From contig JAISLH010000084.1 of assembly GCA_031260565.1 (NCBI GenBank), positions 1 through 38,311 on the forward strand: 38,311 bases of DNA. Direction: 5' to 3'. The notes under the pieces were generated by a model, which saw only the letters and a list, made by a program, of their open reading frames with translations, did not search any database and was not told where the DNA came from. The position numbers and the translations under genes are program-made. Below are positions 1,679-36,456 of the stretch, in pieces; position 1 is the stretch's first letter; each line of letters begins with the position of its first letter. The DNA comes from Bacteroidales bacterium (lineage in GTDB: Bacteria; Bacteroidota; Bacteroidia; Bacteroidales; P3).

Positions 1679-1822
1679 ATGTATTTTAACTTAAAGTCTA
1701 AGGAATCTGACTTAGTTTCCATGGAATACAACTTAAATTCCATGGAATACGGCTTAAATTCCATGGAATACAACTTAAATTCCATTACTTGCGAACTGAA
1801 TTTAATGAACGATATAATATAA
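1679..1822 (+). repeat. 21-bp tandem repeat with TTCCATGGAA core; open frame of heptads
   Basis: Units start at 1717, 1738, 1759 and (partial) 1780. Each contains the 10-bp palindrome TTCCATGGAA followed by an ATACAACTTAA-like spacer. The plus strand holds an open frame from ATG 1679 to TAA 1822 (47 codons) that reads as seven-residue repeats of the form MEYNLNS, with Met at each repeat start. The minus strand is also open and reads MEFKLYS-like heptads. The array separates two co-directional lipoprotein genes. No translation signal is visible, so I list it as a repeat rather than a gene. Confidence 0.85.
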
Positions 1823-5292: not shown

Positions 5293-6690
5293 ATGAAAAG
5301 GACAGAAATAATAACATTATTCAAAGAATCGGCAAAGCAATTAGTCGGTCAGGACATCTGTATTAAGGGTTGGGTGAGAACCAAACGGGGTAATAAAAAC
5401 GTAGCCTTTATTGCTGTCAATGACGGAAGTATCATTCATAGTATCCAAGTAGTGGCAGACGTTGAGCGATTTGAAGAAGAGGTGTTGCGGAACATTACAA
5501 CAGGAGCTTGTATTGGTGTCTGCGGGAAATTAGTTGAGTCTATGGGCAAGGGACAGAGCGTAGAAATTGTTGCCGATAGCATCGAAATTTACGGAACGGC
5601 TAATGCAGAAACATATCCCTTGCAGAAAAAGGGTCATAGTCTTGAATTCCTGAGAGAGATAGCTCATTTGAGAGGACGGACTAATACCTTTGGAGCAGTC
5701 TTTCGCCTAAGGCACGCAATGGCTTTTGCTATCCACAAATATTTTAACGACAGAGGATTTTTCTATTGGCACTCTCCTTTGATTACTGCTTCCGATGCAG
5801 AAGGTGCAGGTGAGATGTTTCGCGTTACAACCTTAGATATGGACAATCTTCCAAAGACAGCGGAAGGTAGAATAGACTATTCGGAAGACTTTTTCGGAGG
5901 AGAAACTTCGCTAACCGTTTCAGGACAGTTGGAGGGTGAGCTTGGAGCAATGGCTTTGGGCAAAATATATACCTTCGGACCTACTTTCAGGGCAGAGAAC
6001 TCAAACACCCCTCGTCATCTGTCTGAATTTTGGATGATAGAACCTGAAATGGCTTTCTACGAATTGGAGGATACAATGGACTTGGCAGAGGATTTCATCA
6101 AGTATCTTGTGTCTTACGCTCTTGAAAATTGCAAAGACGACATAGAATTTCTCAACAATATGTACGACACCTCACTTTTGGAAAGACTACGCTTCGTTGC
6201 GGATAACAAATTCATACGTCTGCGTTACGAAGAGGCTATAAAAATACTCTTGGAAGCTAAACAGAAGTTTGAATTTCCTGTTGCCTTTGGCGTGGATTTG
6301 CAATCGGAACACGAACGCTATCTTGTAGAGCAACATTTTAAGTGTCCTGTCATCTTGATTGACTACCCGAAGGAAATAAAAGCTTTCTATATGAAGCAGA
6401 ATGAGGACGGCAAAACCGTTAGAGCAATGGATGTGCTTTTCCCAACGATAGGAGAAATCATCGGAGGCTCGCAAAGAGAGGAAGATATAGACAAACTTAT
6501 GGCAAGAATGCAAGAAGTAGGCATTGACCCCGCTGATATGGATTGGTATTTGGACACAAGACGCTTCGGTTCTGCTCCTCATAGTGGCTTCGGACTTGGC
6601 TTTGAGCGGCTATTGCTTTTTGTTACGGGAATGAGCAATATAAGAGACGTCATTCCTTTCCCACGTTTTCCAAAAAACGCAGCGTTTTAA
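5293..6690 (+). CDS. asnS: Asparaginyl-tRNA synthetase
   Basis: This class II synthetase charges tRNA-Asn. The 465 residues hold an N-terminal OB-fold anticodon-binding domain ([21 protein letters not shown] begins near residue 26) and a class II catalytic core: motif 2 around [20 protein letters not shown] and motif 3 [12 protein letters not shown] near the C-terminus. Length and motifs agree with AsnRS rather than AspRS. A direct Asn-charging route is therefore present. It probably shares a transcript with the upstream guanylyltransferase, and a terminator follows at 6712. Confidence 0.96.
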
Positions 6691-6711
6691 GAAACAAAAA
6701 CAGCAATTAAA

Positions 6712-6757
6712 GGCTGCTAAAATGCAATAAAATTTGTATTTTAGCAGCCCTTTTTTT
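6712..6757 (+). terminator. Rho-independent terminator after asnS
   Basis: A 12-bp perfect stem (GGCTGCTAAAAT pairing with ATTTTAGCAGCC) encloses a 14-base loop and is followed by C and seven T. It lies 22 bases after the asnS stop. Confidence 0.9.
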
Positions 6758-6823: not shown

Positions 6824-6949
6824 CAAATGCCGCTTCGTCAAAACAAAACGCCGTTTTAATTTTCTAAAGTGGCGTTTCGTGACGCTAAAGTGGCGTTTCA
6901 AGAAATTAAGACGCCGCTTTAGGAAATTAAGGTGGCATTTTATTTTGTC
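6824..6949. repeat. Six-unit 21-bp array, GGCGTTTCGTGACGCT family (copy A)
   Basis: Six consecutive 21-bp units start at 6824, 6845, 6866, 6887, 6908 and 6929. Each begins with AAACGCC(G/A)(T/C)TT or its reverse complement AAAGTGGCGTTT, followed by an AT-rich spacer. The conserved core is at 6871-6886. The mixed unit orientations allow folding into long hairpins. The array lies between the converging ends of asnS and wecB. Both strands are open and read heptads such as RRLNFLK (minus) and KWRFVTL (plus). Confidence 0.9.
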
Positions 6950-13225: not shown

Positions 13226-13515
13226 AAACAGCGTTATAATTCACTCAAACAGCGTTTAAAGTTGCGGAAACAGCGTTTAAAATTATGGAAACAAAGTTTG
13301 AGTTTAATAAGATGTACATCTTATTTTCAGAAGACGTACATCTTATTTTATTTTGATGTACATCTTATTTTCGTTTGATGTACATCTTATTTATTTTTGA
13401 TGTACATCTTATTAAAATTTAATGTACGTTAAAATAAATTAAAACACTGCTTCCATAATTTTAAACGCTGTTTCCGCAACTTTAAACACTGCTTGAGTAA
13501 GTTATAATCAAGTTT
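13226..13515. repeat. Composite inverted repeat: AAACAGCGTTT arms around a 22-bp GATGTACATC array
   Basis: The left arm is four 21-bp units (13226, 13247, 13268, 13289) with core AAACAGCGTTT. The centre has five 22-bp units (13311, 13333, 13355, 13377, 13399) with the 10-bp palindrome GATGTACATC (GACGTACATC in unit 2), plus a decayed sixth at 13421. The right arm (about 13441-13515) is close to the reverse complement of the left arm, including its spacers. The whole could fold into a hairpin with a stem of about 70 bp. It fills the divergent gap between the GH3 gene and the T9SS cargo gene. The gap 13108-13225 shows nothing else. Confidence 0.92.
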
Positions 13516-13577
13516 AAATTTCACCAAGCAAACAATAAATTTTGCAAAACAGCGTTTTAGTACAAATTAAACAGCGT

Positions 13578-18776: not shown

Positions 18777-18962
18777 CGTTATTTTGATTTAATACGAAAA
18801 CAAAGTGCGAAAATATTTTTTCTTTGAGCGACCGCAACGCCAAAACGCCGCATTACAGCCTTAACTTCCGACTGGTTTCTCAAAGTTTTGTCATATTCTT
18901 ACACCACAATCGTCATATTATTCCTTTACTTTTACAATCTTTATTAGAAGATATATTCTATC

Positions 18963-19260
18963 AAATCAAAGACTTGTTAATATTAAATCAAAGACTTGTT
19001 CTGTCAAATCAAAGACTTGTTAATACTAAGTTAGAGACTTATCAATGTTAAATCAAAGACTTATTCTATCAAATTAAAGACTTATCAGTATTAAATCAAA
19101 GACTTGTTCTATCAAATCAAAGACTTGTTAATACTAAGTTAGAGACTTATCAATGTTAAATAAAAGATATGTTCTGTCAAATCAAAGACTTGTTAATACT
19201 AAATCAAAGATATGTTCTGTCAAATCAAAGACTTGTTAATACTAAGTTAGAGACTTATTA
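18963..19260. repeat. About 14-unit tandem array, 21-22 bp, AATCAAAGACTTGTT core
   Basis: Units of the form AAATCAAAGACTTGTT plus a short variable tail (alternating TAATACT/TAATATT and CTGTC/CTATC) repeat about 14 times. 21- and 22-base units alternate, and some units are degenerate (AAGTTAGAGACTTATC, ATAAAAGATATGTT). The centre AAGACTT is an odd palindrome. Pairs of neighbouring units look like higher-order repeats of about 43 or 65 bp. The array fills the divergent gap between atpD and the HU-like gene. There are no unique spacers, so this is not a CRISPR array. Confidence 0.93.
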
Positions 19261-19320
19261 TTATAAGAGTTAAGAAATATTGAGCCAGAACACAGACTTA
19301 TTGAGCTATTACTGCATTTT

Positions 19321-19459
19321 ATTGAGCCAAAGCAAAGACTTATTGAATAAAAGGTGGCAACAAATCAGTCAAAAGGTGGCAACAAATAAATTAAAAGGTG
19401 GCAACAAACTAATCATTTGTTGCCACCTTTTATTCAATAAGTCTTTGTTTTGGCTCAAT
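19321..19459. repeat. 45-bp inverted repeat around AAAAGGTGGCAACAAA units
   Basis: Arms at 19321-19365 and 19415-19459 are reverse complements with one mismatch in 45. The left arm runs from ATTGAGCC through AAAGACTTATTGAAT to AAAAGGTGGCAACAAAT. Two further 22-bp units with AAAAGGTGGCAACAAA fill the 49-base centre. Weaker AAGTCTTT units continue to about 19515. As RNA this would form a very stable hairpin. Confidence 0.93.
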
Positions 19460-19593
19460 AAGTCTTTAATTTAGACCAAAAAGTCTTTGTTTGGGCTCAA
19501 AAATACAAAGACTTAGTATCTGTAAATCAAAGACTTCATAAAAAAAGTCAAAGTTTTTTCATCAATAAGTCAAGATTTCTTCATTTTTTTCCT

Positions 19594-19623: not shown

Positions 19624-20019
19624 ATGGCAGCAGAATACACAGTTGTAAAGAGAAAATTTAATGATAAGGACGGCAATACGCAGGAAAAATTCTACGCTAT
19701 GGCACATGTAAATGAGATAATTAAGACTAAACAGGTCGCAAACTCCATTCAACGCTCCTCAAGTCTTAATTCGGCAGATGTTTATGGCGTTTTGTGTGCG
19801 TTATCTGAGGTTTTGGCAACGCAGTTACGGCAAGGTAACAGCGTGAAACTTGATGGTATCGGCACTTTTTCTTTGTCTTTGACCTCAAAACCTTCAACAA
19901 ATTCCAAAAATGTCCCTCATAAATCGGTCAAAGTTAGCCGTATTTGCTTCAAAGCAGAGCGGAATTTATCACGTGAAATCAGAGACTTGTCGGTCGCAAA
20001 AGCCAAAACTTCGCTGTAA
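19624..20019 (+). CDS. HU-family DNA-binding protein
   Basis: The 131-residue protein resembles the longer HU-like proteins of Bacteroidota. After a short N-terminal extension (MAAEYTVVKRKFNDKDGN), the helical part VNEIIKTKQVANSIQRSSSL and ADVYGVLCALSEVLATQL leads into GNSVKLDGIGTFSLSL, the usual HU core strand. The C-terminal arm region is Lys/Ser-rich. It should bind DNA as a dimer and bend it. It sits immediately downstream of the largest repeat region in the window, with its own promoter. Confidence 0.88.
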   Translation: MAAEYTVVKRKFNDKDGNTQEKFYAMAHVNEIIKTKQVANSIQRSSSLNSADVYGVLCALSEVLATQLRQGNSVKLDGIGTFSLSLTSKPSTNSKNVPHKSVKVSRICFKAERNLSREIRDLSVAKAKTSL

Positions 20020-22742: not shown

Positions 22743-22868
22743 AAAGTGCGATTTCATTTCAACGAAGTCAAGTTTCATTTTCCTAAAGTGGCGTTTCGTG
22801 ACGCTGAAGTGGCGTTTCAAGAAATTTAAACGCCGCTTTAGAAAATTAAGGTGGCGTTTGGCTAAGTT
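22743..22868. repeat. Six-unit 21-bp array, GGCGTTTCGTGACGCT family (copy C)
   Basis: Six exact 21-base steps start at 22743, 22764, 22785, 22806, 22827 and 22848. The core is at 22790-22805. The first two units are diverged (AAAGTGCGATTT, GAAGTCAAGTTT). It lies between the converging ends of the YfhO gene and the DMT transporter gene. One plus frame reads KVAFRDAEVAF heptads and another reads KWRFVTL heptads. Confidence 0.9.
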
Positions 22869-25797: not shown

Positions 25798-25870
25798 CAC
25801 CCATGAAGATAGTATTATTTTGTCAAAAGTAGTGTTGAAGATTGGTATGGAATGCTCCAGATTGAAAATT

Positions 25871-26269
25871 ATGAAGGAAGTAATTTTATTAGTTTTAATA
25901 ACTATATTGCTTGCTTCTTGTGCCTCTAATAATTATAATAACGTTGATATTATTAAAGGTAAATTCAAAATAACAAATAGGACTATTGATAAAAATTGTA
26001 AGGAAGGCTATGCTATTATAACGGGTATTGTGTATGAAAAATTTACTGAAGAAATTATGCCTTTTGCATTTGTTAAAATAGGAGAACTGAACAATGGCTA
26101 TGCCTATATGACAGATAAACATGGTGAATTTTATGCAGAAATACCTGTAGGAAAGTACGAAATTAAAGTATTCGGAACAGGATATACATCTATACGCAAA
26201 ACTATTGTATTCAAAGAAAAAGAGAATGTAGATATTCGTGTCTATTTGGGAGGGACATATATATGGTAA
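25871..26269 (+). CDS. Lipoprotein with carboxypeptidase-regulatory-like domain, copy 1
   Basis: I start the gene at 25871, giving MKEVILLVLITILLASC, a proper lipoprotein signal; the longer frame from 25820 would bury it. The 132-residue product has a conserved stem (GKFKITNRTIDKNCKEGYA) followed by a small beta-sandwich pattern like the carboxypeptidase regulatory domain: TGIVYEKFTEEIMPFAFVKI, then DKHGEFYAEIPVGKYEIKV and IRKTIVFKEKENVDIRVYL. The domain is widespread in Bacteroidota surface proteins. The gene is followed 29 bases later by a paralogue whose first half is nearly identical. Confidence 0.82.
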   Translation: MKEVILLVLITILLASCASNNYNNVDIIKGKFKITNRTIDKNCKEGYAIITGIVYEKFTEEIMPFAFVKIGELNNGYAYMTDKHGEFYAEIPVGKYEIKVFGTGYTSIRKTIVFKEKENVDIRVYLGGTYIW

Positions 26270-26298
26270 TGCATATAAAATATAACCAAAATGCAATA

Positions 26299-26688
26299 AT
26301 GAAGAAAGCATATATAGTTTTAATAACTATATTGCTTGTTTCCTGTGCCTCTAATAATTATGATAACGTTGATGTTATTAAAGGTAAATTCAAAATAACA
26401 AATAGGACTATTGATAAAAATTGTAAGGAAGGCTATGCTATTTTGACGGGGAATGTATATGATATTTTCACAGGTACTGTCGGTGCATATGCAAATATAT
26501 CTATAGAGGAGTTGAAAGTAGGTACATCTGCAAATGAAAAAGGGGATTTTTACTTAGAAGTTCCTGTCGGGGAACATACTATTCAGATATTACTGTCAGG
26601 TTCAACAACAATGCATAAGACAATTAAATTTAAAGAAAAAGAAAAAGTAGAAGTATCAGTTCTTTTAGGAACAGTTTGTATTTGGTAG
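26299..26688 (+). CDS. Lipoprotein with carboxypeptidase-regulatory-like domain, copy 2
   Basis: I start at 26299 (MKKAYIVLITILLVSC), which restores a lipoprotein signal. The 129-residue product is a paralogue of the upstream gene. The first 60 or so residues differ at only a few positions and the DNA there has identical blocks of more than 60 bases. From GNVYDIFTG onward the two proteins are only loosely alike (EKGDFYLEVPVGEHTIQI, HKTIKFKEKEKVEVSVLLG). It is probably co-transcribed with copy 1. Function unknown. Confidence 0.82.
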   Translation: MKKAYIVLITILLVSCASNNYDNVDVIKGKFKITNRTIDKNCKEGYAILTGNVYDIFTGTVGAYANISIEELKVGTSANEKGDFYLEVPVGEHTIQILLSGSTTMHKTIKFKEKEKVEVSVLLGTVCIW

Positions 26689-29531: not shown

Positions 29532-29636
29532 AAAACGCCATAATAATTTTCTAAAGCGGCGTTTCGTGACGCTGAAACGGCGTTTTAATTTCTTAAAACG
29601 CCACTTCGTGAAATTAAAGCGGCGTTTAAATTTTTA
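29532..29636. repeat. Five-unit 21-bp array, GGCGTTTCGTGACGCT family (copy E)
   Basis: Units start at 29532, 29553, 29574, 29595 and 29616. The core is at 29558-29573. The plus strand is open through all units and reads heptads RRFVTLK, RRFNFLK, RHFVKLK. The array lies in the divergent gap between glnS and tRNA-Ser; the flanking parts of the gap (29404-29531, 29637-29800) are AT-rich without recognisable features. Confidence 0.9.
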
Positions 29637-29803
29637 TAGGTAGAGATACAAAAAATTCTTTACTAAAATCAAACATTTATAACAAGGGGTGGATTCAAGT
29701 AAAGTCAATGAATTATTTGATGTTATCTCTCATTACTTATCTTTTTCTTTCAACTAATGGTAATTTTTTTTCATAAAGTAGTTTTTCTATTTCATTTTTT
29801 TGT

Positions 29804-36372: not shown

Positions 36373-36456
36373 AAAACGCCACCTTAATTTTCTAAAGTGG
36401 CGTTTCGTGACGCTGAAACGCCGCTTTAGAAAAATAAAACGGCGTTTTAGGAAAAT
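36373..36456. repeat. Four-unit 21-bp array, GGCGTTTCGTGACGCT family (copy F)
   Basis: Units start at 36373, 36394, 36415 and 36436. The core is at 36399-36414. Here the arms 36388-36406 and 36415-36433 pair over 19 positions (one wobble) around an 8-base GTGACGCT loop, the strongest hairpin of the family. It lies between the converging ends of ybeY and dapD and probably terminates or protects both transcripts. Confidence 0.9.

What the first reader, a model, noticed from the sequence alone, without database searches (positions are those of the whole stretch)
13226..13515. Nested repeat: long inverted arms of one unit type around a tandem array of another
Four AAACAGCGTTT units of 21 bp on the left and their reverse complement on the right, including the variable spacers, flank five GATGTACATC units of 22 bp. 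Matching spacers mean the right arm arose by inverted copying of the left arm, not by independent growth. The same plan (inverted arms around a different tandem unit) occurs at 19321-19459. This suggests a growth mechanism through hairpin or template-switch replication.
Basis: seen in the sequence. Interest (0 to 1): 0.62.

Follow-up and report, generated by a model that had tools for sequence, protein, structure and literature searches.

The report
Two-turn palindrome lattices beside HU-like genes
The odd nested repeat is one of dozens of similar intergenic elements in this bacterium: rows of short palindromes set exactly two DNA turns apart, which are probably docking rows for an expanded family of histone-like (HU-HIG) proteins; if so, it links a large unexplained repeat class to the proteins that read it.

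Summary
In this 2.05-Mb Bacteroidales MAG, 16 viewed loci share the plan: 3-7 (mostly 5) GATGTACATC sites every 22 bp, flanked by inverted rows of AAACRSYGTTT sites every 21 bp. The join between unit types is always exactly 21.5 bp (25 of 25), so arms and centre form one continuous two-helical-turn lattice. In 256 kb, all tandem arrays found at a strict cut-off have periods of 20-22 or 41-44 bp. Related species keep the period but use different sequences. Cores are 98-100% conserved and spacers only 56-75%, across several taxa. Curvature, unit-level hairpins and RAYT transposition are not supported. Inverted copying has partial support (same-locus arms more alike, p=1.5e-4), but the window's left arm resembles another locus better than its own right arm. 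The best explanation is operator arrays for HU-HIG (HU/IHF-fold) proteins. HU-HIG copy number tracks array density (rho 0.89 over 15 lineages). HU-HIG genes carry arrays upstream about twice as often as gap-matched genes (22/38 vs 11.8 expected, p=8e-4). In eight genomes a HU-HIG gene lies beside a GATGTACATC array. Binding was not tested.

The parts
13226..13299 (+). left arm: four 21-bp units, cores 13226-13236, 13247-13257, 13268-13278, 13289-13299 (AAACRSYGTTT type)
13311..13408 (.). central array: five 22-bp units, cores GATGTACATC / GACGTACATC at 13311, 13333, 13355, 13377, 13399
13421..13430 (.). degenerate sixth central site AATGTACGTT, still on the 22-bp lattice
   Evidence: sequence; spacing 43.5 bp to first right-arm core
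13442..13494 (-). right arm: three inverted 21-bp units, cores 13442-13452, 13463-13473, 13484-13494
13547..13557 (+). isolated AAACAGCGTTT core, 63 bp (3 x 21) from the centre of the last right-arm core
   Evidence: sequence
19319..19461 (.). second nested element: inverted arms (98% complementary) around AAAAGGTGGCAACAAA units at 22 bp
18948..19258 (+). CAAAGACTTGT lattice (21/22-bp steps, higher-order 43/65/108 repeat) just left of the second element
19624..20019 (+). HU-HIG gene (PF18291), candidate lattice-binding protein, start 117 bp from the second element's arrays
   Evidence: Pfam 107.7 bits
34009..34205 (.). TGTCAATTGACA palindrome array, 21 bp, about 9 units
1681..1808 (.). TTCCATGGAA palindrome array, 21 bp
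6862..6934 (.). AAAGTGGCGTTT-type array, 21 bp (arm-type unit without a centre)
22752..22849 (.). AAAGTGGCGTTT-type array, 21 bp
29533..29639 (.). AAACGCC-type array, 42-bp (2 x 21) register, upstream of tRNA-Ser
36416..36456 (.). AAACGCCGCTTT pair, 21 bp

Best explanation
The element is a composite operator-like array: 10-11-bp dyad-symmetric sites spaced by two helical turns (21 bp in the arms, 21.5 bp at the joins, 22 bp in the centre), so that every site faces the same side of the helix. SHOWN: the lattice, its continuity across unit types, its recurrence genome-wide, core-specific conservation, conservation of the period but not the sequence among relatives, and association with HU-HIG genes. 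INFERRED: each unit type is the cognate site of one paralogue of the expanded HU-HIG (HU/IHF-fold) family. A row of dimers bound on one face would form a regular filament that autoregulates the paralogue's own gene and marks or compacts other intergenic sites. The arms would be read by a different paralogue from the centre. Arms are kept mirror-like partly by inverted copying or quasipalindrome correction within a locus.
For: Lattice: nearest arm core to central core 21.5 bp in 25/25 cases (43.5 bp where a degenerate site intervenes). In 256 kb, array counts by lag at the strict cut-off were 21:32, 22:21, 20:1, and otherwise only 41-44. Cores are 97.8-100% and spacers 56-75% conserved in own, g11, Phocaeicola coprophilus, Bacteroides MAGs and UBA5796. 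Core variants: 0 dyad-compensated, 20 dyad-breaking, as expected for protein recognition and not for a hairpin. Reader: HU-HIG copies vs array density, Spearman 0.89 over 15 lineages (p=7e-6) and 0.54 over 63 genomes. Arrays lie <=450 bp upstream of 25/41 HU-HIG genes vs 75/598 ORFs (p=6e-12), and in 22/38 vs 11.8 gap-matched (p=8e-4). HU-HIG genes sit beside GATGTACATC arrays in own C65, G023, G070/JAQVXZ, Kf353_bin79, STD2_97, UBA5796, Bacteroides CALUOR and Prevotellaceae Hs463. In G023 the best match to the own C65 protein among 19 HU-HIG matches is the array-adjacent one. GATGTACATC-adjacent HU-HIGs cluster on the tree (0/500 shuffles as low). Closely related HU-HIGs share repeated array words (Mantel r 0.43, p=5e-4). 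Own HU-HIG-adjacent units recur at other loci. HU fold: AlphaFold pLDDT 87, Foldseek hits to HU/IHF.
Against: No binding data. 16 of 41 HU-HIG genes have no array within 450 bp, and most of the own second HU-HIG subgroup lacks upstream arrays. Arrays also lie upstream of 33% of other genes with long upstream gaps, so the adjacency enrichment is about twofold once gaps are matched. Genome-level correlation falls to 0.37 when GC is controlled. G081 and G064 have many HU-HIG copies but no arrays in the small stretches sampled. P. coprophilus arrays have no HU-HIG gene in the 8-kb loci held. Closely related species share flanking DNA by descent, which inflates the Mantel result; only a few cross-genus pairs (G003/G074, G070/G006) are free of this. 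Some units (AAAAGGTGGCAACAAA, ATTTCGGAACCTGTTACAA) are not palindromic.
Confidence: 0.6

Rival explanations
1. Selfish or neutral dispersed repeat (MITE-like minisatellite element such as BrickBuilt) that spreads and expands by replication slippage, with no binding protein.
For: About 16 clusters in the sampled own DNA and 171 unit pairs genome-wide. Almost always intergenic, in all gene orientations. Sporadic between species (2 of 393 Bacteroidales genomes with exact pairs). BrickBuilt has a comparable tandem-core-plus-flanks anatomy.
Against: No fixed ends: matched extents vary from -80 to -392 and from 76 to 465 bp around the first central core. Slippage does not predict one period for unrelated units or phase continuity across units. 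Neutral tandem copies should not keep cores at 98-100% while spacers fall to 56-75%.
Confidence: 0.2
2. Hairpin or template-switch growth: the element is a product of inverted duplication and quasipalindrome correction, tolerated because SbcCD is missing.
For: Same-locus arm excess p=1.5e-4. Perfect mirror array in G005 (L158). SbcD is below the family cut-off in the own genome, its genus, and all seven family genomes holding GATGTACATC pairs.
Against: Most loci do not match their own partner best. Palindromes are not clearly tied to SbcD loss (15/40 negative vs 5/27 positive genomes). Does not explain the 21/22-bp lattice or core conservation.
Confidence: 0.12
3. RNA element or terminator/attenuator: the transcript folds into a long hairpin that acts in RNA.
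For: Very stable predicted hairpin on either strand.
Against: Arrays lie in divergent, tandem and convergent gaps alike. Core variants are never compensated. Arm mismatches show no strand-specific wobble bias (43 vs 54). No Rfam family.
Confidence: 0.05
4. Intrinsically curved DNA with phased A-tracts.
For: AT-rich spacers at helical spacing.
Against: Predicted curvature is no greater than in dinucleotide shuffles (mean z -0.3 over 17 arrays, while phased A-tract controls score high).
Confidence: 0.03

Closest known systems
BrickBuilt MITE of Porphyromonas gingivalis (PMC4596501)
   Same: Bacteroidales; intergenic; about 20 dispersed copies; tandem minisatellite of 23 nt inside flanking segments; long predicted stem-loops.
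   Different: BrickBuilt repeats have no spacer and carry IS5-type terminal inverted repeats, with unique leader and tail. Here units are core plus spacer at 21/22 bp, several unit families share one lattice, and there are no fixed ends.
REP/BIME elements, including IHF-binding BIMEs (RIB) of E. coli (from general knowledge)
   Same: Intergenic palindromic repeats in clusters; some bind an HU/IHF-fold protein.
   Different: No Y1 (RAYT) transposase in this genome; sites are 10-11 bp at two-turn spacing, in many unit families.
HU-HIG proteins (PF18291; the clade paper, Burroughs et al. 2017, was not readable here)
   Same: The window gene and its paralogues match the family.
   Different: No cognate DNA array for these proteins was found in the papers searched.
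Phased operator or iteron arrays (from general knowledge)
   Same: Direct repeats of about two helical turns bound on one face.
   Different: Dozens of dispersed intergenic copies, with two site types joined in one phase and in mirror order.

Membership tests
MITE / BrickBuilt | fixed ends with terminal inverted repeats | tested here: not met
   matched extents vary widely among 16 copies
MITE / BrickBuilt | target-site duplication | not tested
   no defined end from which to measure it
MITE / BrickBuilt | dispersed intergenic copies with internal tandem repeats | tested here: met
REP/BIME mobilised by RAYT | Y1 transposase (PF01797) in the genome | tested here: not met
   0 matches; the control rings in E. 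coli
Known structured RNA | Rfam match at gathering score | tested here: not met
   only a tRNA in the window
Phased protein-binding array | constant helical phase of sites | tested here: met
Phased protein-binding array | core conserved over spacer | tested here: met
Phased protein-binding array | demonstrated binding of a protein | not testable with these tools
   needs EMSA, DAP-seq or ChIP-seq
HU-HIG protein family (window 19624-20019 and own C65:6546-6920) | Pfam PF18291 over cut-off | tested here: met
   107.7 bits; 95 bits
HU-HIG protein family (window 19624-20019 and own C65:6546-6920) | HU/IHF fold | tested here: met
   own C65 model only: pLDDT 87, hits 4fmr, HU and IHF

The most novel reading that the evidence does not exclude
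A paralogue-coded DNA lattice: many Bacteroidales carry expanded HU-HIG proteins, each reading its own palindrome at two-turn spacing. Mirror-symmetric composite lattices of two codes (arm code and centre code) are placed between genes as a bacterial chromatin-like or boundary system. The conserved feature is the period, while the code turns over between species.
Probability: 0.35. Interest if true: 0.88.

Novelty: new variant of a known kind. Interest (0 to 1): 0.72.

Why it matters
HU-HIG genes have multiplied in many Bacteroidales (1-3 copies in most lineages sampled, about 40 in some), and none of the papers I could search gives a DNA target or function for them. The association here gives each paralogue a predicted site and a directly testable code. 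It would also explain a large class of intergenic minisatellites. If HU-fold proteins, usually regarded as sequence-tolerant, had become an expanded set of sequence-specific lattice readers, that would be an unexpected form of bacterial chromosome organisation or regulation.

Tried and rejected
RAYT transposase: absent. DNA curvature: none above shuffles; wedge parameters from memory. Wobble-biased RNA arms: no bias. SbcCD loss as the cause of palindromes: suggestive only. Viral carriage of the GATGTACATC array: no exact match in IMG/VR. Literature: no paper found on this 21/22-bp lattice or on HU-HIG arrays; the 2017 HU/IHF clade paper is not held. Hits with only two cores (Geotalea, Flavobacterium) may be chance.

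Full report
1. The observation. The nested repeat is there as described, with small corrections. Left: AAACRSYGTTT-type cores at 13226, 13247, 13268 and 13289 (21-bp steps). Centre: GATGTACATC or GACGTACATC at 13311, 13333, 13355, 13377 and 13399 (22-bp steps), then a decayed sixth core AATGTACGTT at 13421. Right: inverted cores at 13442, 13463 and 13484. The whole is an imperfect palindrome (131-nt arms, 79% complementary) and folds far better than shuffles. The second example at 19319-19461 is also real (98% complementary arms).

2. It recurs genome-wide. The window is a whole contig of a 2.05-Mb, 133-contig Bacteroidales MAG. A pair of GATGTACATC cores 22 bp apart occurs 171 times with up to 2 mismatches (86 times exactly), against 0 for the reversed-pattern control. 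Sixteen loci viewed in 256 kb of own DNA all have the centre. Fourteen show arms on both sides; the other two are cut by contig ends. Several contigs (C20, C46, C47) start or end inside such arrays. Other centres occur with similar arms: GGTATATACC has arm-type flanks at L093:3126 and L099:6075.

3. The period is the invariant. In own DNA, segments at least 32/44 identical at lag d number 32 at d=21, 21 at d=22, 1 at d=20, and otherwise only 41-44 (1, 15, 3, 17) between d=10 and d=60. Unit sequences differ widely: TTCCATGGAA, TGTCAATTGACA, AGCTATAGCT, TTGACGTCAA, CAAAGACTTGT and others. About half of the consensus units hold an exact palindrome of 10 bp or more, against 7% for shuffled units (the GATGTACATC loci count many times there). 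In about 1.95 Mb of family relatives, excluding low complexity, lags 21 (60) and 22 (38) dominate, followed by 42; 11 bp (27) is also raised, and 11-bp mirror arrays were seen in a GC-rich genus. Nothing comparable was seen in 230 kb of other families and E. coli. Relatives mostly use other sequences: same-genus G001-G003 have no GATGTACATC pair.

4. One lattice across unit types. The distance from the nearest arm core centre to the first or last central core centre is 21.5 bp in 25 of 25 cases, or 43.5 bp where one degenerate site intervenes. Further arm cores follow at 42.5, 63.5 and 84.5 bp. So the 'nested' element is one continuous two-turn lattice in which the occupant sequence changes, not two independent arrays.

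5. Selection on cores. Core identity to consensus is 97.8% (own), 99.4% (genus g11), 100% (Phocaeicola coprophilus An818), 99.5% (Bacteroides MAGs) and 98.3% (UBA5796), while spacers are 56-75%. The non-own loci were found by an exact 22-bp pattern and units were admitted at up to 2 core mismatches, which inflates core identity somewhat. In own, g11 and P. coprophilus the site extends to TNNGATGTACATCNNA. Variant cores never restore the dyad (0 compensated, 20 broken), so recognition of sequence, not hairpin formation, best explains conservation. Predicted curvature is ordinary.

6. Inverted copying. Same-locus left/right arms are more similar than different-locus pairs (39.4 vs 30.0, p=1.5e-4), so some homogenisation within loci is likely. 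But the window's left arm is closer to other loci's left arms (66, 60) than to its own right arm (55), and the own right arm ranks first in only 4 of 14 loci. Loss of SbcD in the own genome, its genus and all seven family genomes with GATGTACATC pairs could make long palindromes tolerable, but the palindrome-SbcD link is weak (15/40 vs 5/27 genomes).

7. The gene right of the second element (19624-20019) is HU-HIG, an HU/IHF-superfamily protein. The own genome has 14 PF18291 matches. Genera with arrays have raised counts (g1 5-14, g2 about 40, g5 4-33, g11 5-23 in the genomes sampled for arrays); most lineages without arrays have 1-3. Across 15 lineages Spearman is 0.89; across 63 genomes 0.54, or 0.37 controlling for GC. 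Of 41 HU-HIG genes found by protein alone, 25 have a 21/22-bp array within 450 bp upstream, against 75/598 ORFs generally and 58/178 ORFs with long upstream gaps. Gap-matched resampling expects 11.8 of 38 and 22 are seen (p=8e-4). Ten control lags gave an upstream array in only 3 of the 48 HU-HIG genes examined.

8. Pairing. Own C65:6546-6920 has the GATGTACATC element upstream, and own C53 has GGTATATACC upstream. These units, and those beside C42, C120 and C65a, recur at other loci. Among public loci found by the GATGTACATC pattern alone, a HU-HIG gene lies beside the array in seven further genomes: G023, JAQVXZ (G070), Kf353_bin79, STD2_97, UBA5796, Bacteroides CALUOR and Prevotellaceae Hs463 (upstream in five, downstream in STD2_97 and UBA5796). 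Outside the family that is 5 of 21 loci, p about 3e-6 to 3e-4 under an assumed 1.1-3% chance per locus. These proteins cluster on the HU-HIG tree (0/500 shuffles as low). In G023 the closest of 19 HU-HIG matches to the own C65 protein is the array-adjacent one; in G070 the array-adjacent copy ranks third of 16. Cross-genus pairs G003/G074 (TATGTTGCCAACATA) and G070/G006 (AAACGGCGTTT) share units. The latter suggests a HU-HIG reader for the arm unit.

9. Verdict. The lattice and its generality are shown; the HU-HIG link is correlative but comes from several independent angles. Binding, regulation and any chromosome-organising role are inferred.

Noticed in passing
own genome and relatives: SbcD (TIGR00619) is below cut-off in the own genus and in genus g11, and patchy across the family.
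   Followed up: partly
window 18948-19258: Higher-order repeat of 43/65/108 bp built from 21- and 22-bp steps of CAAAGACTTGT units.
   Followed up: no
L158:3714-3838 (G005) and L211:3529-3602 (G122): Tandem units of about 11 bp (one turn) followed by a mirrored inverted copy that includes variant positions, in a GC-rich genus.
   Followed up: partly
L133:4419-4522 and 6617-6737 (G003): AATCAAATT units occur in either orientation at a fixed 21-22-bp phase, with palindromic spacers.
   Followed up: no
L052, L058, L074, L086 (Anaerolineales UBA5796): GATGTACATC arrays and a HU-HIG gene in a MAG labelled Anaerolineales; either transfer between phyla or misbinned contigs.
   Followed up: no
G050, G015, G004: HU-HIG candidates of the first look reach 43-55 per genome, some in adjacent gene clusters.
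   Followed up: no
own C20, C46, C47 ends: Assembly contigs start or end inside GATGTACATC arrays, so copy counts are lower bounds.
   Followed up: no
window 25820-26688: Two adjacent, similar small lipoprotein-like ORFs (149 and 141 aa), apparently a tandem duplication.
   Followed up: no
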